Shown: positions 14,029-33,204 of the stretch, piece by piece
Layout of the letters: the number at the start of each line of letters is the position of its first letter
Position numbering within the stretch: position 1 is the stretch's first letter
From: Oscillatoriales cyanobacterium
GTDB taxonomy: Bacteria > Cyanobacteriota > Cyanobacteriia > Cyanobacteriales > Microcoleaceae
Assembly: GCA_004292745.1 (NCBI GenBank)
Contig: RDXH01000011.1
Span: 1-33,445, forward strand
Direction: 5' to 3'
DNA length: 33,445 nt
The notes under the pieces: model-generated
The model's database searches: none
The model's input: the letters and a program-made list of their open reading frames with translations, nothing else
Told to the model about the DNA's origin: nothing
Program-made: the position numbers and the translations under genes

Positions 14029-15291
14029 ATGATTTTAACCTACTCCTACCGAATTAAACCCAATGCTGAACAAGAAGCAACCATGCTCCATACATTAGAG
14101 CTGCTGCGCCGGCATTGGAATTATTGTTTGGGGCAAAGGTTAGATTGGCTGCAACGAACTCGTTGTCAGGTTGACCGTTGCAGTATTGTTTCTGAGCCAA
14201 TAGGCGAGATACCTACTACAGTCAACTATTACACCCAGCAATCAGAGCTCAAACATACTAAAGTGCTGTTTCCTGACTACAAAAATATTTGGTCAGAGTC
14301 GCAGCAAGTTAACTTGCAACGGCTAAACAAAGCTTGGGAGCGCTGGTTGTTTCCGGATAAATCTGGCAAACGCGGTGGGCGACCGAAGTTCAAAAAAGCT
14401 GGCGAATTGCGGTCATTTGTTTACCCGCGAGTTAATTGTCTTAAAGCCGGAGCGTACCTCAATAATGGTGTGTTGAAACTGTCAAAGATTGGGGAGATGC
14501 CAGTTGTCTGGCATCGCCCTATCCCCGACGGCTTTATTTTAAAAACTTGCACTATTGTTCGTAAGGCTGATGGCTGGTATTGCTGTATCTCCATGCAGGA
14601 TGACACTGTACCCGAACCATTGCCACTGGAAGAAATAAAAAGCGCTGTTGGTGTTGATGTTGGGTTGAAAGAATTTCTTACCACGTCTGAGGGTGAGACA
14701 GTCCCCATCCAGCAAACCTACCGCAAAACTCAGTCTCACCTGGTACGAGCGCAGCGCAAGTTAGCAAGGTCAAACAAGGGGTCAAATCGCTCTAACAAAC
14801 AGAAAAACAAGCTCGCCAGAATTCATCAACGGATTGGTCGAATCAGGGAAAACTTTCACTACAACACCGCTCACGCTCTCGTCAAAAAGTATGACTTGAT
14901 TGCGGTGGAAGAATTAAACATCAAAGGGCTTGCTCGAACAAGATTGAGCAAATCAATTTTAGATGCAGCTTGGGGAAGGTTTATCACCATATTGGAGGCA
15001 GTGGCGGTCAAACGCGGTGTCCGAGTGGTCAAGGTGAATCCTCACGGCACATCACAAAATTGCTCGAATTGTGGAGCGAAAGTGCCGAAAACTTTGTCCG
15101 TTCGCTTGCATGAATGCCATAAATGTGGACTGCAAATGGATCGGGATGAAAATGCAGCTTTGAATATTTTGAACAGAGCATTAAACGAGGTGGGACTCAT
15201 CTTGTCTGCGCAGGGAGGCTTAGGGGATACCCAGCCTGTGAAGTGTGAAGCTTTTTCAGGTTGGGGCAGCGTACAGCTATCTCTATTCTGA
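14029..15291 (+). CDS. tnpB: TnpB, RNA-guided nuclease of an IS200/IS605 element
   Basis: 420 residues. The N-terminal helix-turn-helix/wedge part runs to about 200 (MILTYSYRIKPNAEQEA), then a split RuvC-like domain: D210 in GVDVGLK, E294 in VEELNIKGL, and D371/D373 in DRDENAALN, with the zinc ribbon C345-C348/C363-C366 (NCSNCG, HECHKCG) between the last two. All catalytic and zinc residues are present, so the nuclease is predicted active. TnpB proteins use an RNA from the element's right end to cut DNA next to a short target motif, promoting element retention. The length is at the upper end of the family. The ATG at 14029 sits directly beside the tnpA remnant's 5' end. The guide RNA would overlap the tnpB 3' end and finish at the right-end hairpin. 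Confidence 0.95.
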   Translation: MILTYSYRIKPNAEQEATMLHTLELLRRHWNYCLGQRLDWLQRTRCQVDRCSIVSEPIGEIPTTVNYYTQQSELKHTKVLFPDYKNIWSESQQVNLQRLNKAWERWLFPDKSGKRGGRPKFKKAGELRSFVYPRVNCLKAGAYLNNGVLKLSKIGEMPVVWHRPIPDGFILKTCTIVRKADGWYCCISMQDDTVPEPLPLEEIKSAVGVDVGLKEFLTTSEGETVPIQQTYRKTQSHLVRAQRKLARSNKGSNRSNKQKNKLARIHQRIGRIRENFHYNTAHALVKKYDLIAVEELNIKGLARTRLSKSILDAAWGRFITILEAVAVKRGVRVVKVNPHGTSQNCSNCGAKVPKTLSVRLHECHKCGLQMDRDENAALNILNRALNEVGLILSAQGGLGDTQPVKCEAFSGWGSVQLSLF

Positions 15292-19275: not shown

Positions 19276-19663
19276 GGGGCTGTAATGGTTTCGACAGGGT
19301 GGCGAAAGCTGCTCCGTGATGCAGGTCGAGAGGGAGTCTACTCTCGTAAATATCGGCTCAAACAAAATAGTAAATGCGAACAACATCGTTCCTTTCGCTC
19401 GCAAAGCCGTAGCTGTAGCCTAAAAACTTCTTGAGCTTGGTTTAGAGTGTATGCCACCTAACTCCGTTAACGGTAGCATAACAACCCCCAACGGATGCCC
19501 TAGCTAAACGTTTCTAGTCGGCTAGCTGGGAAAGCAATCACTAGAAAATCCTCCCATTTAGGATAAAGATGGTTCCCGCCCCGAGGATCAGAGGGGATAA
19601 ACCTGTGAACGATCGGAAGGTAAATACCCGCTTTGGACGGCAGTTCGATTCTGCCCAGTTCCA
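19276..19663 (+). ncRNA. ssrA: tmRNA (one-piece)
   Basis: The 5' end GGGGCTGTAATGGTTTCGAC and 3' end GGCAGTTCGATTCTGCC-CAGTTCCA give the tRNA-like half: GGGGCTG pairs with CAGTTCC (7 bp, two G-U), the T-loop TTCGATT is present, and CCA is encoded. The tag reading frame runs 19376-19420 with a TAA at 19421, coding ANNIVPFARKAVAVA, the usual cyanobacterial tag ending in AVA that marks proteins for Clp-type proteases. Pseudoknot-forming segments lie in 19430-19600. Together with SmpB it frees stalled ribosomes. It is a single-piece tmRNA, unlike the two-piece forms of some marine picocyanobacteria. Confidence 0.97.
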
Positions 19664-26796: not shown

Positions 26797-27960
26797 TTAA
26801 CTATCCTTCCCAGAATGAGGACGGATGAAATTCAACTGATTAATTGCCCAGCGAGCTGTTTCCTGAACTTCGGGATCGGGATCGTCAGTAGCATAATGCA
26901 ATAAGTAAGTAATTTGATTTACTAATTCATAGATGCGTGTCAAATCACGAATTGCATTTTTACGCACTTCCGGATTTTGATTTTGCAATGAAATTGACCA
27001 AGCATTATTCATCGGCTTGAGCGTGCGAACGCCTATTTCTGAGAGAGTTGCTAAGACTAAACTATACTGGTTAGAGTCTGAATTTGCTAGCAGATCTACC
27101 AGTGGCTTAATAGCTCTGGAATCTCCGTGTTGGCCCAGTTCCCAGATTGCCTTACGCCGCTGATTTGGATTTAGGTGCTGCAAATCTTCAATCAATAATT
27201 CAATAATATCAACTTGAGGTCTCTCACCATCTTCGGAAATGAAAATATCTTTGGTAAGAGGGGCTAAGGAATCGGTAAAATTGCTCTTTTGAGAAACATT
27301 CAAATCTGTGTCAGTGTATAAGCCGTTGCTGTTAGTTTCTACATATAAGGCATCGGAATTGATTCGATCGCCTTCACTTCCTGTTTCCTCCGTTTCTCTA
27401 CTGTCTGGATTGTAGCCTTTCGAGAAATCAGAACCATCGGGCAATACTGGTGTGGTTTTGATTCCCAAATAAATGCCTGCTGGTCTAGTTTCGTTGAGCT
27501 TTCTGGGAGAGTCGGGAGTTTTGAATTGAGTATTTCTTGGTTTATGGCGATCGAATCTACCCCGTTTTCGCTGAGAATTATTTGACTCGTCACTACCAAC
27601 TAATTTGAGCATGATAAATACTGCCGCTGCCGTGATGACAATGGCGGCCACACCCAAGATTAACAACCCTCGCTGGCGAGACAAAATGACGATTAAATTC
27701 GAGATTGATTTGGGGACTTTGGAATTAGATTTTTGGGTTTTAGATGGCTGAGATTTGCTTCTATCGGTTCCTGGAGATGGTTTTGGAGTCTTGGAGTCGG
27801 GGCGATCGTCCGAGGGGGAGTTCGCCTGAGCAATTTCTGGAGAAGCATCGCGGTAGGACACATTGACGGCGTTTTTACGTCCGTCCCGATCGGGACTGAA
27901 GGCTGCCCCCAGACAGGCGATACAGGTAAATAAAAGTAAAGTGAATCGGTAGTACGCCAT
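26797..27960 (-). CDS. HEAT-repeat protein with membrane anchor
   Basis: 387 residues from ATG 27960 (an in-frame TTG at 27969 is less likely). The N-terminus MAYYRFTLLLFTCIACLGAA is a signal peptide or lipoprotein-type signal (LGAA without a perfect lipobox Cys). A Ser/Pro/Lys-rich stretch follows, then a membrane helix at about 90-115 (LLILGVAAIVITAAAVFIML), a long polar region, and C-terminal HEAT-like helical repeats (about 265-387) with RRKAIWELGQHGDSRAIKPL, and PEVRKNAIRDLTRI and PEVQETARWAI as repeat cores. HEAT repeats bind proteins; in cyanobacteria related repeats also occur in phycobilin lyases, but the membrane layout argues against that here. It is divergent from the helicase gene. 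Confidence 0.8.
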   Translation of the reverse strand: MAYYRFTLLLFTCIACLGAAFSPDRDGRKNAVNVSYRDASPEIAQANSPSDDRPDSKTPKPSPGTDRSKSQPSKTQKSNSKVPKSISNLIVILSRQRGLLILGVAAIVITAAAVFIMLKLVGSDESNNSQRKRGRFDRHKPRNTQFKTPDSPRKLNETRPAGIYLGIKTTPVLPDGSDFSKGYNPDSRETEETGSEGDRINSDALYVETNSNGLYTDTDLNVSQKSNFTDSLAPLTKDIFISEDGERPQVDIIELLIEDLQHLNPNQRRKAIWELGQHGDSRAIKPLVDLLANSDSNQYSLVLATLSEIGVRTLKPMNNAWSISLQNQNPEVRKNAIRDLTRIYELVNQITYLLHYATDDPDPEVQETARWAINQLNFIRPHSGKDS

Positions 27961-28273
27961 AAGACTCAACCGGGTTTTTTAGAGGCAATGCCACATGACA
28001 GGCTTTAGCTGTAACCTTGAGCTAGCTCGATCCTAGCTGCTATGGGCTCAACTAATTCAAAAATAGCCCCAGATTATGAAAAAATAATGGTTTGAGATTG
28101 CCTCAAGGAAGGCACAAGGCTTTCGGCAGCAGACAGAAGGAAATAAAAACGGGGAATGCAAAACTTTTGCTGTTTTTTCGATCGCACTTTAAAAGTCTGT
28201 CTTGAGTTGACCAATTGCCTCCTTGCCGGTTAAGTCATTGAATTAATTATCGTAAACAGCTACTGGGACTCTT
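27961..28273. other. Divergent intergenic region
   Basis: About 310 bases between divergent genes. It contains a GAGCTAGCTC palindrome near 28019-28028 and otherwise nothing I recognise. Promoters of both neighbours must lie here. Confidence 0.5.
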
Positions 28274-31165
28274 GTGGGTAAAGCAGCACAATCTCGAAAA
28301 TTTATTGCGACTGAGCCACTAGGAAAAAGCGGAGAAACGGCAGAAAAAAAGGTTTGGGATGCCGTTTGCGAGGCTTTTGCCGATCGCGATTGCATTGCCT
28401 ATTGGCGATATCCTATTTTTTCTTCCTGTGGAAATTTTCGCAAAGAACCTGATATTCTAATTGCTGATTTTGAACTGGGTTTAACTATCATTGAGGTCAA
28501 AGCGATCGCGATCGACCAAATTGTCGCCATATCTGGTCATAGATGGGATTTCCAACATTTTTATACTACTGGGGGCAACCCCTATCAGCAAGCAGAGCAT
28601 CAACTATACGCCATGCTTGGTTACTGCGATCGCGAAACAGCTTTGCGGGGCAAAGTCAGCGGGCGGGCGATCGTTGCCTTACCATCAATTTCTCAGCAAC
28701 AGTGGCATAATAAAGAGTTTAACAAGCTTCCGAGCAATCCGCCGATCCTTTTTCACGACCACCTCCACAGAAATTCAGGACAAACAATAATTGGTGGAAT
28801 CGAAAAACCAGGAACCGCCCCAAATTTTGTCATTTCCTCACCGGGAAATCCTCAATTATCTATTCCCCATACTCCCCATCTAATAGAATTTATTAAAAAT
28901 ACGGCTTGTGTTTTTAAAGGAAGCCAATTAAACCGGGAACAGTGGCAATTACTGCTAGCTGTAATTGGCGGAACTCCTATTTTTAAACCACGACCAAGAC
29001 GATTTTTTTTCAATCAGCAGCAACCAGCACCACCAACAAATTTGATTTCTTCCCCTCTGGCAAATTATACAACCCGTGCAGCAGTTTTAGCTAATTTACA
29101 GCAGCAGTTTTCCCAACTAGATTTGCAACAAGAACGCATCGGCAAACAGATACCTCCTGGGCCGCAGCGAATTCGGGGAATTGCAGGTTCTGGCAAAACA
29201 GTTGTACTCTGCCAAAAAGCAGCTCTGATGCACTTAAAATACCCAGATTGGGATATTGCCTTGGTCTTTTTTTCTCGCAGTTTGTACGAGCAGATTGTCG
29301 CCCAGTTAGATAAGTGGCTCCGCCGTTTTAGCAATGGTGAAATTGGCTACGATGCTAATAATAATCAAAAATTGCGTCCGCTCCATGCTTGGGGTGGACA
29401 AGACAGACCCGGACTTTACAGTACAATTTGTCGCGCTGCGGGAGTGGGACGTTTGACTGTTGGTGACACAGATTTTCAGGAACCAACTCAAGCTTTAGCC
29501 TATGTCTGTCGCCACTTGCTAAAATCTGCTAATATACCCCAAATTTTTGATGCTATTCTAATTGATGAATCTCAAGACTTAATGGTTGCCGCAAATTTTA
29601 ATATACAAGGAAAACAGCCATTTTTTTGGATGGCTTATCAAGCTCTACGCCTAGTAAATATTCCCCCAACCTACCCCGATCGAGAAGGGGGTGCTAATCA
29701 GCTACAAACATTGGATAATTTCTCCCCCCCTTTACAAGGGGGGGTTGGGGGGGGTCAAGATTTGCGCCGTTTAATTTGGGCTTACGATGAAGCACAAAGT
29801 TTGGAATGTCTAGAGATTCCCACGGCTAGCAAATTATTTGGTGAAGAGTTAGGGCATTTGGTAAATGGCGAGTACAGCGACGGTATCAAAAAGACTGAGA
29901 TTATGCAAAAATGTTACCGCGTTCCCGGCCCAATTTTAACTGCTGCTCATGGAATTGGTATGGGTTTGTTGCGACGGGGGGGAATGCTGACTGGTATTAC
30001 TCGCGTGGAAGATTGGAAGGCGATCGGCTACGAGGTAGTTGTCGATCGAGAATCGGAAATAAATACAGAAATAGTCAAAAATAATCAATATCAATTAGCT
30101 CAAAAAATTACTATTTACCGCCCTGCTGATAACTCTCCGAATTTAGTGCCTAAATTGTGGGTAAATCCGGTTTTGGAGTTTGAAGCCTACCGTTCTCGTC
30201 AAGAAGAATTAACTGCCATAGCTGAAGATATTTTATACAATCTCAAAGTGGACGGTTTGAGACCCTCCAGGGAAATTTTAGTGATTGTTTTAGGTACGGG
30301 CTTTGAAGCAATGGAACTTGAAACTTATACGGCTAATTTTTTAATGAACCAAGGAATTGATATTTACATTCCCAGTACCCCAAGTTGCAATCTCTTGAAA
30401 GTAAATAAAGCCAATTCTCAGCCCGATCGCTTTTGGTGCGAAGGCGGAGTCACGGTATCTCGGATTCACCGTGCTAAGGGAAATGAAGCTGATATGGTAT
30501 ATCTGATTGGTTTTGACTCCATTGCTAAAAATGAAAGTAATTTGAGTTTGCGAAACCAATTATTTGTAGCCTTAACTAGGTCAAAAGGTTGGCTGAAATT
30601 GAGTGGAACTGGTGCATACCCCATGTATGATGAAATGTGGCGAGTCATGCAAAGTGGCGATAGTTTTACTTTTACTTGGAACCAGCACCATCAGAGAAAT
30701 ATTAGTGTTACAGATGCGGGAGATTTGGTGGCTAGATATGCAGCGGGAGGGAGAAATTTTCAGGGTGTAAATTTATCGGGTTCGGATTTAGTTGGTGTAA
30801 ATTTGCAGCGAGCTAATTTAGTTGGTTCTAAGTTGATTGGTGCAGATTTGCAAAATGCTAATTTAGATGATGCCCGGTTGATTATTGCTGATTTGAATGG
30901 TGCTAATTTGAGCGGTGCTAGTTTGAAAAAAGCCAAGTTAGTGGGGGCTTTTTTAAATAATGTTAAGTTAAATCAAGCTAATTTAAGCCGTGCGGATTTG
31001 AGCGAGGCTCAGTTGAAAAATGCAGATTTAAGATGTGCTATTATCACTAAGGCTAATTTGAGTGGTGCAGATTTGCAAGGTGCTAATCTGGAGGGTGTTG
31101 ACTTGACAGATGTTCGTTTGAGTGGGACAATCATGCCGGATGGAAGCGTTTGGGCGATCGATTAA
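28274..31165 (+). CDS. NERD nuclease - UvrD-like helicase - pentapeptide-repeat fusion
   Basis: 963 residues from GTG 28274. 15-165: NERD domain, a PD-(D/E)xK nuclease fold with D60 (KEPDILI) and E74-x-K76 (IIEVKA). 295-775: superfamily 1 helicase core with Walker A GIAGSGKT (302-309), Walker B ILIDESQD (428-435), WAYDEAQSLE (502-511) as motif III, QKCYRVPGPI near 545, VTVSRIHRAKGNEADMVYLI (726-745) as motif V, and LFVALTRS (763-770) as motif VI. 825-950: about 24 pentapeptide units of A(D/N)LxG type, predicted to form a right-handed beta-helix. NERD-helicases are implicated in DNA metabolism or defence; the pentapeptide tail is unusual and could mimic or bind DNA-like partners. Residues 464-495 come from an intergenic-type repeat lying in frame. 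Flanked by ordinary genes. Confidence 0.9.
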   Translation: MGKAAQSRKFIATEPLGKSGETAEKKVWDAVCEAFADRDCIAYWRYPIFSSCGNFRKEPDILIADFELGLTIIEVKAIAIDQIVAISGHRWDFQHFYTTGGNPYQQAEHQLYAMLGYCDRETALRGKVSGRAIVALPSISQQQWHNKEFNKLPSNPPILFHDHLHRNSGQTIIGGIEKPGTAPNFVISSPGNPQLSIPHTPHLIEFIKNTACVFKGSQLNREQWQLLLAVIGGTPIFKPRPRRFFFNQQQPAPPTNLISSPLANYTTRAAVLANLQQQFSQLDLQQERIGKQIPPGPQRIRGIAGSGKTVVLCQKAALMHLKYPDWDIALVFFSRSLYEQIVAQLDKWLRRFSNGEIGYDANNNQKLRPLHAWGGQDRPGLYSTICRAAGVGRLTVGDTDFQEPTQALAYVCRHLLKSANIPQIFDAILIDESQDLMVAANFNIQGKQPFFWMAYQALRLVNIPPTYPDREGGANQLQTLDNFSPPLQGGVGGGQDLRRLIWAYDEAQSLECLEIPTASKLFGEELGHLVNGEYSDGIKKTEIMQKCYRVPGPILTAAHGIGMGLLRRGGMLTGITRVEDWKAIGYEVVVDRESEINTEIVKNNQYQLAQKITIYRPADNSPNLVPKLWVNPVLEFEAYRSRQEELTAIAEDILYNLKVDGLRPSREILVIVLGTGFEAMELETYTANFLMNQGIDIYIPSTPSCNLLKVNKANSQPDRFWCEGGVTVSRIHRAKGNEADMVYLIGFDSIAKNESNLSLRNQLFVALTRSKGWLKLSGTGAYPMYDEMWRVMQSGDSFTFTWNQHHQRNISVTDAGDLVARYAAGGRNFQGVNLSGSDLVGVNLQRANLVGSKLIGADLQNANLDDARLIIADLNGANLSGASLKKAKLVGAFLNNVKLNQANLSRADLSEAQLKNADLRCAIITKANLSGADLQGANLEGVDLTDVRLSGTIMPDGSVWAID
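29663..29758. repeat. G/C-run hairpin repeat inside the helicase gene
   Basis: CCCCC...GGGGG near 29663-29691, CCCCCCCTTTACAAGGGGGG at 29723-29742, then TTGGGGGGGG. The same C-run/G-run hairpin occurs in intergenic positions at 9955-9986, 15435-15451 and 33275-33445. Here it is translated without a stop as PPTYPDREGG and SPPLQGGVGGG. Confidence 0.8.
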
Positions 31166-31392: not shown

Positions 31393-31449
31393 TGGTGTAA
31401 TTTTGGTATAAAATTAACCTAAATTTTTAGTGTGAGAGTAGAGGCATTT

Positions 31450-33204
31450 GTGAGCCAACAAGATATTGTAAATTTAGCCAAAGAAGGCGATGCTAAGGCG
31501 ATCGCATTTTTGATCTCTCAAGCACTCCAAAGCTTTGGAGTCACAGCTAAAGCCAGCCGCGAAAACAACACCTTGCATTTGTTGCTCGAAGGTGAAAAAT
31601 TACCCGCCCAAGATGCTTGCATCCGAGTCGCAGTCAAAGGCTTGCAGAGACTGCAACCAAATCACATTTACTTCCTGACAATTTACGGGCGACGAAATGG
31701 TGAGGAATTGCCAGCTTGGACTCAGAATGTCGAATTAACAAAACCATTAAATTCCCCACCAGCAGTTACAGGGGCTGCCCGAATTACTGCGGTTTTACAA
31801 AAGGTAGAACCACATCAAAATGTCAAAATTGATGCTCCTAAAATTAGCGAAAAAACAGCGCAAAAACCACCTGTACTTACAACAGAAAAACCAAAAAATC
31901 CTCAAATCACCGAGCAAACAGCACCAAAACCATCTGTACTTACAACAGAAAAACCAAAGAATCCACCGCAGCAACAAAAGCTTGTCGGCAGCAAAACTAA
32001 GCATCAAAAACCTTGGCTTTACATGGCTGGTTTGAGTCTAATTTTAGTGCCGATATCTGGGATTGTTCTAGCTACTCAACTTTACAAATCCCCAAGCACG
32101 GCTGCTACTGAGACTGAAATACCCCAGGCGGAGGTACCGGAAGTGCGATCGATAAACTCCCCATCACCAAATCCCCAAGCCATCCCCACTCCAAAAACAC
32201 CGCCCGTACCAGCCAAAAAAACCGTCACAGCACCCGCAACTGTCAGCATCAAAGCAGTGGGGGATATTATCCCCGGTACGAATTTTCCCTACAACAAGTT
32301 ACCTCAAAAAAAGGAGATTTTATTTGAGTCGGTTAAACCGCATTTGAAAGGAGCTGATATTTTATTTGGCAATTTTGAAAGCACGATGACCGATCATCCT
32401 TACAGCTCGAAAGGAGGCGGCGGAGGTATGCTGTTTGCCTTTCGGACACCTCCGAGTTATGCAAAAATCTTGAAAGATGCTGGTTTTAATATTTTGAATA
32501 TTGCCAACAATCATTCTTACGATTTTAACGAGCAGGGATTTAAGGATACGATTAAAAACATTGATAGCCAGGGGATGAAAGCAGTTGGTAAAAGAGACCA
32601 AATTGTCTATAAAAATGTCAAAGGTGTGAATTTTGCTTTTATCGGTTTTAGCAACTACGGCGAAGTTCACAATTCGTTATTGGAACTAAAGGCTGGGGCG
32701 GAAGTTGTCAAAAAAGCTAAGCAAAAGGCTGATATTGTGGTGATATCTGTTCATGCTGGTGCGGAAGGAACGGGGGCTTTGAATGTGCGAAATAAAAATG
32801 AATTTTTTGCTGGTGAAAACCGGGGAAATATGGTTTTGTTTTCGCGAACAATGATTGATGCGGGTGCGGATTTGATTTTGGGACACGGGCCCCATGTTGC
32901 GAGGGCGATGGAACTTTATAAGGGGAAATTGATTGCTTATTCCCTGGGCAATTTTATGGGCTATCGTACTTTGTCAACTGTGGGAGAATTGGGTAAATCT
33001 CTGATTTTGGATGTGAAGATGAATCCGCAGGGTGATTTTGTATCTGGTAAGATTATTCCGATCGCACTTAATGGCCAGGGTATTCCGTCTTTGGATGATG
33101 ATTTTAGGAGTGTGAAGTTGATTCGGCGTCTGACGAAAAGCGATTTTCCTAATGCTGGTTTGAGTATTGGCGACGGGGGACAAATTGTGAAGCAGAGTAA
33201 TTAG
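31450..33204 (+). CDS. CapA-family (PGA_cap) metallophosphatase-like membrane protein
   Basis: 584 residues from GTG 31450, preferred because AGAGG precedes it at 6 bases; another in-frame GTG at 31432 has no ribosome site. Residues 1-97 form a cytoplasmic alpha/beta domain (DIVNLAKEGDAKAIAFLISQ; YFLTIYGRRNGEELPAW) found in several cyanobacterial membrane proteins. A linker with a 27-residue internal duplication (TAxKPxVLTTEKPKNP twice) leads to a membrane helix at about 189-211. Residues 265-560 are a PGA_cap domain of the calcineurin-like class: KAVGDIIPG, FGNFEST, IANNHSYD, ISVHAGAE and LGHGPHV carry the expected metal ligands. Related CapA/PgsA proteins act in poly-gamma-glutamate or capsule formation. 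No PgsB/C partners are nearby, so the substrate is unknown. Confidence 0.88.
   Translation: MSQQDIVNLAKEGDAKAIAFLISQALQSFGVTAKASRENNTLHLLLEGEKLPAQDACIRVAVKGLQRLQPNHIYFLTIYGRRNGEELPAWTQNVELTKPLNSPPAVTGAARITAVLQKVEPHQNVKIDAPKISEKTAQKPPVLTTEKPKNPQITEQTAPKPSVLTTEKPKNPPQQQKLVGSKTKHQKPWLYMAGLSLILVPISGIVLATQLYKSPSTAATETEIPQAEVPEVRSINSPSPNPQAIPTPKTPPVPAKKTVTAPATVSIKAVGDIIPGTNFPYNKLPQKKEILFESVKPHLKGADILFGNFESTMTDHPYSSKGGGGGMLFAFRTPPSYAKILKDAGFNILNIANNHSYDFNEQGFKDTIKNIDSQGMKAVGKRDQIVYKNVKGVNFAFIGFSNYGEVHNSLLELKAGAEVVKKAKQKADIVVISVHAGAEGTGALNVRNKNEFFAGENRGNMVLFSRTMIDAGADLILGHGPHVARAMELYKGKLIAYSLGNFMGYRTLSTVGELGKSLILDVKMNPQGDFVSGKIIPIALNGQGIPSLDDDFRSVKLIRRLTKSDFPNAGLSIGDGGQIVKQSN

What the first reader, a model, noticed from the sequence alone, without database searches (positions are those of the whole stretch)
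28274..31165. NERD nuclease, SF1 helicase and pentapeptide-repeat domain in one protein
The sequence shows a PD-(D/E)xK NERD domain, a complete UvrD-like helicase core and a ~125-residue pentapeptide-repeat tail in one uninterrupted frame. NERD plus helicase is a known pairing; a C-terminal pentapeptide beta-helix is not one I know. Pentapeptide proteins such as QnrB and MfpA mimic DNA and bind gyrase, so the tail may target a topoisomerase, phage DNA enzyme or self-inhibit the nuclease. This is the best candidate here for an undescribed DNA-processing or defence factor acting alone.
Basis: partly seen in the sequence, partly recalled or inferred. Interest (0 to 1): 0.75.

Follow-up and report, generated by a model that had tools for sequence, protein, structure and literature searches.

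The report
Nuclease-helicase with conserved pentapeptide tail
A cyanobacterial protein joins a DNA-cutting domain, a DNA motor and a rod-shaped repeat tail; in the relatives examined the tail is old and always goes with an intact cutting site, which hints that it controls or aims the cutter.

Summary
Window 28274-31165 encodes 963 aa: an N-terminal NERD-type PD-(D/E)xK nuclease, an SF1 helicase and a 125-residue pentapeptide beta-helix (pLDDT blocks 87-97). It is neither a recent fusion nor an assembly error: in a tree from helicase columns, 63 homologues (60 with tails of at least 90 aa) form one cyanobacterial clade.

Main new result: all 63 keep the nuclease residues D60/E74/K76, whereas 36 of 58 tail-less relatives have lost E74 or K76. 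At least 10 changes map outside the tailed clade, none inside. Against a simple reading, 22 of the 58 keep the nuclease without a tail. Walker A is intact in all 125 homologues.

The tail is not an acidic DNA mimic (net charge -1, median -2) and carries a conserved basic pair (R/K868, K888) one coil apart. Sampled neighbours of tailed genes are mostly housekeeping; in the genus the gene was repeatedly lost. Tail-less relatives occur on plasmids and, in 3 of 5 Bacillota cases, near defence genes.

Best reading: an Nhi-like single-protein nuclease-helicase whose tail is a binding or control platform. Defence is inferred, not shown. New variant of a known kind.

The parts
28274..31165 (+). 963-aa NERD nuclease - SF1 helicase - pentapeptide-repeat protein (GTG start, stop included)
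   Evidence: 100% hit G000:C158:28274-31162
28274..28768 (+). NERD-type PD-(D/E)xK domain, aa 1-165
   Evidence: Pfam NERD in 8 of 16 family members, not in the window protein; AF2 model pLDDT 80.9, SduA and EndoMS among the first solved neighbours
28451..28501 (+). catalytic core residues D60 ... E74-x-K76
   Evidence: invariant in the 60-row tailed alignment; E74 or K76 lost in 36 of 58 tail-less rows
28769..29068 (+). variable linker aa 166-265, partly low confidence
   Evidence: pLDDT <50 at 167-200 and 235-263; dN/dS 0.15-0.62
29069..30673 (+). SF1 helicase core, aa 266-800
29177..29200 (+). Walker A GIAGSGKT, aa 302-309
   Evidence: GxxGxGK[T/S] in all 125 homologues
29555..29581 (+). 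Walker B ILIDESQDL, aa 428-436
   Evidence: DE kept in the 119 of 125 homologues that the output shows
29660..29755 (+). in-frame insert, aa 463-494, carrying a copy of a genome-wide palindromic repeat
   Evidence: absent from the aligned homologues outside the Microcoleus group; pLDDT <50; repeat has 40 matches in the genome at <=2 mismatches, 0 for the reversed control
30449..30595 (+). UvrD_C_2 segment, aa 726-774
   Evidence: E=7.2e-10
30713..30742 (+). short helix before the repeats, aa 814-823
   Evidence: DSSP on the model; conserved in the tailed alignment
30752..31126 (+). pentapeptide beta-helix tail, 25 units, aa 827-951
   Evidence: PF00805 1.2e-33; beta-helix, block pLDDT 87-97; 60 tails of >=90 aa in one clade
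30875..30937 (+). basic ladder: R868 and K888 (20 residues apart), with K886
   Evidence: K/R at 868 in 95% and at 888 in 93% of 60 rows, at 886 in 85%; every other i-1 position <=31%
26797..27969 (-). upstream HEAT-repeat gene, conserved neighbour
   Evidence: 28 of 29 genus genomes
31432..33204 (+). downstream PGA_cap-like gene, conserved neighbour
   Evidence: 29 of 29 genus genomes

Best explanation
A single-polypeptide nuclease-helicase of the Nhi-like kind. The SF1 motor moves on DNA (inferred from conserved motifs); the N-terminal PD-(D/E)xK domain cuts or nicks it (inferred from invariant catalytic residues); the C-terminal beta-helix is a rigid protein- or nucleic-acid-binding platform that aims or restrains the nuclease (inferred). 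Shown by comparison: the tail was added to a nuclease-helicase chassis that also exists without it, most simply once, and in the rows examined it occurs only with intact nuclease residues. The likeliest use is removal of foreign or damaged DNA (anti-phage or anti-plasmid). In cyanobacteria it acts as a dispensable chromosomal single gene, not visibly as part of a multi-gene island.
For: 63 rows form the tailed clade (SH-aLRT 100 in a quick tree; 99 in the larger tree) and 63 of 63 have D/E/K, against 22 of 58 tail-less rows; all 10 parsimony changes (13 losses without regain) lie outside the tailed clade although it holds 20.0 of 33.0 units of ingroup branch length (with Bacillota, Deinococcus and plasmid rows 11 changes, 15 losses). 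Walker A is intact in all 125 homologues while the nuclease decays, so the motor is the constant part. Tail dN/dS 0.08-0.45. Chassis kin in defence libraries and settings: PADLOC 'Helicase' PDLC03002 2.3e-75, NERD+UvrD C3a187 1.2e-10, RTasNERD-Hel 2.5e-6 for L108; L108 lies next to an IetA/IetS pair, with a ZorD/DpdE-like SNF2 helicase about 5 kb away; L253 is followed directly by an N6-MTase and a type I specificity gene; L256 has BrxA and BrxB 6-8 kb downstream. Three Bacillota kin scanned carry an N-terminal DUF4145 and no pentapeptide match: swapped accessory modules. The gene is dispensable: intact in 8 of 29 genomes of the genus, with remnants at some empty sites.
Against: No activity is shown. 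The tail is not needed for keeping a live nuclease: 22 of 58 tail-less rows keep D/E/K (Domibacillus among them), as do the six full-length plasmid proteins fetched. One row of the tailed clade, L080, has its tail cut after 48 aa and an intact nuclease. Neighbours of tailed genes are mostly housekeeping; 110 sampled neighbours gave scattered PADLOC matches, single proteins such as a type II REase, a type II MTase, PD-T4-6 and HEC-06 among them (25 of 70 families shown, no random control run). Two of five Bacillota neighbourhoods showed no defence system: two L255 neighbours gave no PADLOC hit, L254 was judged from its gene list only. The tail arose once, so its link to a live nuclease has one phylogenetic origin; the pattern was seen first and tested on the same data; tree warnings note several long branches. 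Synteny within the genus looks vertical. No relatives were found in viral contigs (pattern-limited) or in phage records at E<=1e-30.
Confidence: 0.48

Rival explanations
1. Housekeeping genome maintenance: a cyanobacterial end-processing or mismatch/repair nuclease-helicase (RecBCD/AdnAB-like in function), with the tail docking it to a repair partner.
For: Chromosomal synteny between a HEAT gene and a PGA_cap gene in the genus; neighbours mostly housekeeping; the helicase resembles RecD/UvrD/Rep and the nuclease EndoMS as well as Shedu.
Against: Intact in only 8 of 29 genus genomes; a match at E<=1e-60 in 54 of 386 genomes of the phylum; relatives on plasmids and near defence genes.
Confidence: 0.28
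2. The tail is a passive scaffold: it adds stability or makes the protein dimerise, without any specific role for the nuclease.
For: Pentapeptide proteins are abundant in cyanobacteria (passages of PMC8145042); tail length varies beyond aa ~910; the tail arose once, so its link to a live nuclease could be lineage history; tail-less live forms exist.
Against: R/K868, K886, K888 and the R-N-F start are conserved at positions outside the A..L core pattern; within the tailed clade no row is cleanly tail-less, the three short ones being cut by a contig end (L076), an in-frame stop (L092) or an early frame end (L080).
Confidence: 0.21
3. The tail is a DNA mimic like MfpA/Qnr that binds gyrase or plugs the protein's own nuclease.
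For: Same fold: QnrB1 and MfpA are among the weaker matches.
Against: Net charge -1, median -2, range -9 to +5 over 60 rows; the best matches are cyanobacterial pentapeptide proteins and designed beta1 solenoids, not Qnr; conserved basic patch.
Confidence: 0.06
4. Recent local fusion or assembly artefact.
For: The window is one contig of a 408-contig assembly.
Against: Same architecture in 60 distinct homologues, including records not labelled MAG such as Planktothrix and Hydrococcus.
Confidence: 0.01

Closest known systems
Nhi / Nhi-like (single-gene nuclease-helicase immunity)
   Same: One polypeptide with nuclease and helicase; NERD (PF08378) is listed for Nhi-like (passage of PMC10952713); Nhi nicks and unwinds DNA (passage of PMC12904381).
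   Different: Has a C-terminal pentapeptide beta-helix; cyanobacterial; no defence test; direct sequence relation to Nhi not tested here.
PADLOC candidates 'NERD+UvrD' (C3a187), 'Helicase' PDLC03002, DRT-associated RTasNERD-Hel
   Same: Best matched stretches of the window protein lie in the helicase: 1.2e-10 and 2.3e-75; RTasNERD-Hel 2.5e-6 for L108, over its NERD part.
   Different: No reverse transcriptase among the 10 window neighbours scanned with Pfam; pentapeptide tail.
Cyanobacterial pentapeptide proteins (Alr5209, HetL, NP275/NP276)
   Same: Pentapeptide beta-helix; NCBIfam Alr5209 7.2e-25 and HetL 1.6e-21, both below the curated cut-offs; 2j8k (NP275-NP276) is the first Foldseek hit.
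   Different: Fused to a nuclease-helicase; family-specific basic ladder.
GajB of Gabija
   Same: SF1 UvrD-like helicase, weak match 2.6e-9.
   Different: Gabija is a two-gene system with an OLD nuclease (recalled); here one protein with a NERD nuclease.
Shedu SduA
   Same: First solved neighbour of the NERD model.
   Different: SduA has no helicase (recalled).

Membership tests
NERD nuclease domain (PF08378, PD-(D/E)xK) | Profile match | tested here: inconclusive
   Not hit by the window protein at E<=1, hit by 8 of 16 family members, best 2.5e-8
NERD nuclease domain (PF08378, PD-(D/E)xK) | PD-(D/E)xK fold with intact D...ExK | tested here: met
   AF2 element order and PD-(D/E)xK structural neighbours, weak E-values; D60/E74/K76 invariant in tailed rows
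SF1 (UvrD/RecD-like) helicase | Walker A/B and C-terminal motifs | tested here: met
Pentapeptide-repeat protein | At least 8 tandem A(D/N)LXX-type units forming a beta-helix | tested here: met
   25 units; PF00805 1.2e-33; beta-helix model
MfpA/Qnr-type DNA mimic | Strongly acidic, DNA-like surface | tested here: not met
   Net charge -1, median -2 over 60 rows; no surface map was computed
MfpA/Qnr-type DNA mimic | Gyrase binding | not testable with these tools
   needs an assay
Nhi-like anti-phage system | Single protein with NERD nuclease and helicase | tested here: met
Nhi-like anti-phage system | Homology to Nhi itself | not tested
   Nhi sequence not fetched; no model named Nhi among the 13 PADLOC matches of P0001
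Nhi-like anti-phage system | Protection against phage | not testable with these tools
   needs a challenge assay
Multi-gene defence island component | Conserved defence neighbours of the tailed genes | tested here: not met
   Window neighbours and 110 of 246 selected neighbours: no shown PADLOC family in more than 3 proteins; 3 of 5 Bacillota relatives do have such neighbours

The most novel reading that the evidence does not exclude
The pentapeptide beta-helix is a built-in governor of a live NERD nuclease: added once to an immunity-type nuclease-helicase, it restrains or aims the nuclease, and lineages without it are freer to drop the nuclease and keep only the motor. That would be, as far as I know, the first pentapeptide domain with a role in controlling a nuclease, and a function for one of the many unexplained cyanobacterial pentapeptide domains. 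Tail-less proteins with live nucleases would then need another control or another task.
Probability: 0.28. Interest if true: 0.75.

Novelty: new variant of a known kind. Interest (0 to 1): 0.5.

Why it matters
Cyanobacteria hold about a quarter (26.9%) of pentapeptide sequences, and the biochemical functions there are almost completely unknown (passages of PMC8145042). Here such a domain is tied to an enzyme with a clear expected activity, and tail-less relatives exist, at times in the same genome, so its role can be tested directly by deletion and swap. The chassis recurs with another add-on (DUF4145) and near BREX, IetAS or restriction genes, which suggests a modular single-protein family; the fusion was not found in the papers searched.

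Tried and rejected
Rejected: assembly artefact or recent fusion; acidic DNA mimicry; a defence island around the window gene; phage carriage (600 pattern stretches, 0 relatives; no match at E<=1e-30 in 50,697 phage records). The profile of A1 found no PDB sequence at E<=0.001. A Pfam NERD match for the window protein itself failed. Schlafen (SLFN11) appeared in Foldseek over 821 columns but at TM 0.27-0.31, 11% identity and rmsd 22, so I treat it as a helicase-level resemblance. Three plasmid proteins named 'pentapeptide repeat' or rfrA proved tail-less and a fourth is truncated. Literature: no paper holds 'NERD domain' + 'pentapeptide repeat' + 'helicase'; one holds 'pentapeptide repeat' + 'NERD', and its one pentapeptide passage is about Orc/CDC6 fusions; the two papers with 'pentapeptide repeat' + 'antiphage' + 'nuclease' were seen as a listing, one of them also in passages.

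Rows dropped before counts: 20 ORF pieces covering under 560 core residues, several of them the same place in two or three loci: the broken G018 copy, G151, G032, G029, pieces in G167 and L105, and the second ORF of L092. The four distant outgroup rows (L187, L035-L037) are outside the 121 ingroup rows. L080, L076 and L092 are in the 63 but not among the 60 with tails of at least 90 aa. L174 has a 99-aa C-terminus that is not pentapeptide and was counted tail-less. One search left out two L248 fragments and L263, and L187 and L036. Of 185 relatives, 105 were not returned.

Full report
OBSERVATION. The window is a whole 33,445-base contig (C158) of a 5.9-Mb, 408-contig genome; the nearest named relative is 'Microcoleus sp. 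EPA2' at 96% over the core. The frame 28274-31165 codes for 963 aa. Pfam finds the pentapeptide repeats and the UvrD C-terminal segment. NERD is not hit in the window protein itself but is in 8 of 16 family members. AlphaFold2 with 60 tailed family sequences gives mean pLDDT 82.6 and pTM 0.83; the tail is a regular beta-helix with block pLDDT 87-97. A separate model of residues 1-170 (pLDDT 80.9) has PD-(D/E)xK endonucleases as its first neighbours, Shedu SduA first, none at E<0.001.

CONSERVATION OF THE FUSION. A scan of genome contigs gave 185 confirmed relatives, of which the best 80 were returned; 54 of 386 genomes of the phylum have a match at E<=1e-60, some of them only to more distant relatives. 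Merging the loci in hand gave 125 distinct homologues covering most of the core. In a quick tree from helicase columns only, with nuclease and tail left out, 63 rows form one tailed clade, SH-aLRT 100; 60 have tails of at least 90 aa past residue 812, and the other three are cut by a contig end (L076), an in-frame stop with the tail in the next ORF (L092) or an early frame end (L080). Records in the clade include Microcoleus, Tychonema, Kamptonema, Symploca, Coleofasciculus, Planktothrix, Hydrococcus, Spirulina, Halothece and Prochloron; tail-less rows are largely Nostocales, with Moorena and others. At least eight genomes hold both forms (pairs L169/L168, L063/L093, L073/L097, L069/L110, L075/L096, L082/L131, L087/L113, L177/L171). 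In these the long partner is intact 8 of 8 times, the short one 4 of 8.

TAIL AND NUCLEASE. At the positions of D60, E74 and K76, 63 of 63 tailed-clade rows read D, E, K. Of 58 tail-less ingroup rows, 22 do; the other 36 have lost E74 or K76 in varied ways. Parsimony needs 10 changes (13 losses without regain), none in the tailed clade, which has 20.0 of the 33.0 ingroup branch-length units; if changes fell by branch length the chance is about 8e-5. Adding Bacillota, Deinococcus and plasmid rows gives 11 changes (15 losses), none in the tailed clade, chance about 4e-4, and 28 of 67 tail-less rows intact. Walker A is kept in all 125. NERD evolves about as fast as the helicase in tailed rows (median distance ratio 1.0), about the same in tail-less intact rows (1.1) and faster in dead ones (1.29). 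Caveats: the tail arose once; the pattern was found and tested on the same data; sampling favours rows near the query; the quick tree warns of long branches; and a live nuclease clearly does not need a tail.

THE TAIL. Net charge -1 here, median -2, range -9 to +5 over 60 rows, so no strongly acidic DNA mimic. In the A(D/N)LXX pattern the second position is K/R at 868 (95%) and 888 (93%), 20 residues or one coil apart, against 31% or less at every other such position; 886 is K/R in 85%. Its best PDB sequence matches are designed beta1 solenoids and cyanobacterial pentapeptide proteins. dN/dS over 11 pairs: tail 0.08-0.45, linker 0.15-0.62, NERD 0.07-0.21, helicase blocks 0.05-0.18 except one value of 0.38 in the near-identical pair window/L058. 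In two pairs (window/L058, L066/L072) the tail value exceeds the linker's, so the tail is constrained but not uniformly more so than the linker.

LOCUS HISTORY. In the genus, 8 of 29 genomes have the intact gene and one (G018) a copy broken by stops and frameshifts. The flanking HEAT gene is found in 28 of 29 and the PGA_cap gene in 29 of 29. In 15 genomes the two lie about 0.5-1.0 kb apart on one contig without the gene (my count from the coordinates). Five of these keep a short match to residues 940-963 in the right place and orientation (E 1.5e-4 to 1e-3 in a small database), one of the five also to 115-176; G003 keeps residues 5-83. The simplest reading is an early presence in the genus followed by repeated decay; the short C-terminal matches alone would be weak.

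SURROUNDINGS. Neighbours here: HEAT protein, M24 peptidase, protein kinase, ndh-type genes, PGA_cap. Recurrent neighbour clusters across homologues are listed. A random 110 of 246 neighbours of tailed genes (at most 900 aa; seven near-duplicate Microcoleus-group loci left out) gave VTT/DedA in 6 and SahH in 5. At 1e-20 they matched 70 PADLOC families, of which 25 are shown, none in more than 3 proteins; single proteins matched a type II REase, a type II MTase, PD-T4-6, HEC-06, MzaA and others. No random-locus control was run.

KIN OUTSIDE CYANOBACTERIA. In 398 genomes of Domibacillus's phylum, 7 match at E<=1e-80, five of them strongly. Domibacillus L108 (tail-less, intact nuclease) lies next to an IetA/IetS pair, with a ZorD/DpdE-like SNF2 helicase about 5 kb off. 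L253 is followed by an N6-methylase and a type I specificity gene; L256 is followed by a PDC-S37/Hhe-like protein and, 6-8 kb on, BrxA and BrxB. L255 gave no PADLOC hit in the two neighbours scanned, and L254 was only listed. L253, L255 and L256 have a DUF4145 N-terminus (L254 looks alike by eye), and all four have lost the lysine. On plasmids 14 of 72,556 records match at E<=1e-50, six from Deinococcus and eight from cyanobacteria; of the seven regions fetched, six hold full-length tail-less proteins with D/E/K and one (Chondrocystis, 546-aa frame) is truncated.

READING. The constant part is an SF1 motor with a NERD domain. Accessory modules differ: the pentapeptide rod in one cyanobacterial clade, DUF4145 in Bacillota rows, none elsewhere. 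[quoted passage not shown] NERD is listed for Nhi-like (passage of PMC10952713). In the two-protein Hachiman system the helicase restrains the nuclease (abstract start of PMC12278908 in the listing). I propose that the rod is the partner surface or governor of a live nuclease. Shown: architecture, one tailed clade, conservation, association with an intact nuclease, dispensability. Inferred: DNA cutting, defence, and the tail's role.

Noticed in passing
window 29660-29755: An in-frame insert in the helicase carries a palindromic repeat found 40 times in this genome at up to 2 mismatches (0 for the reversed control); the stretch is predicted disordered and varies among close relatives.
   Followed up: partly
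L108 2064-13159 (Domibacillus mangrovi): A tail-less relative with intact nuclease sits between an IetA/IetS pair and a NYN-domain gene, with a ZorD/DpdE-like SNF2 helicase nearby: it looks like a defence island in a Bacillota genome.
   Followed up: partly
   Followed up: partly
L258, L261, L262 (plasmids): Tail-less family members are annotated as pentapeptide repeat or rfrA proteins though the frames end without repeats.
   Followed up: yes
L045/L070 and L047/L092: The copy in G018 is broken by stops and frameshifts and that in Lyngbya aestuarii by one in-frame TGA.
   Followed up: partly
L174 (G323): A tail-less member with an intact nuclease has a different 99-aa C-terminal extension without pentapeptides.
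   Followed up: no
L080 (Microseira wollei): The only row of the tailed clade whose tail ends early (48 aa) inside a contig; loss or disruption not resolved.
   Followed up: no
L100: A contig filed under Candidatus Gracilibacteria groups with Hydrococcus in the tree and is probably a misbinned cyanobacterial contig.
   Followed up: no
window 14029-15291: An IS605 OrfB/TnpB-like gene.
   Followed up: no
window 19276-19663: A tmRNA gene with tag ANNIVPFARKAVAVA.
   Followed up: no
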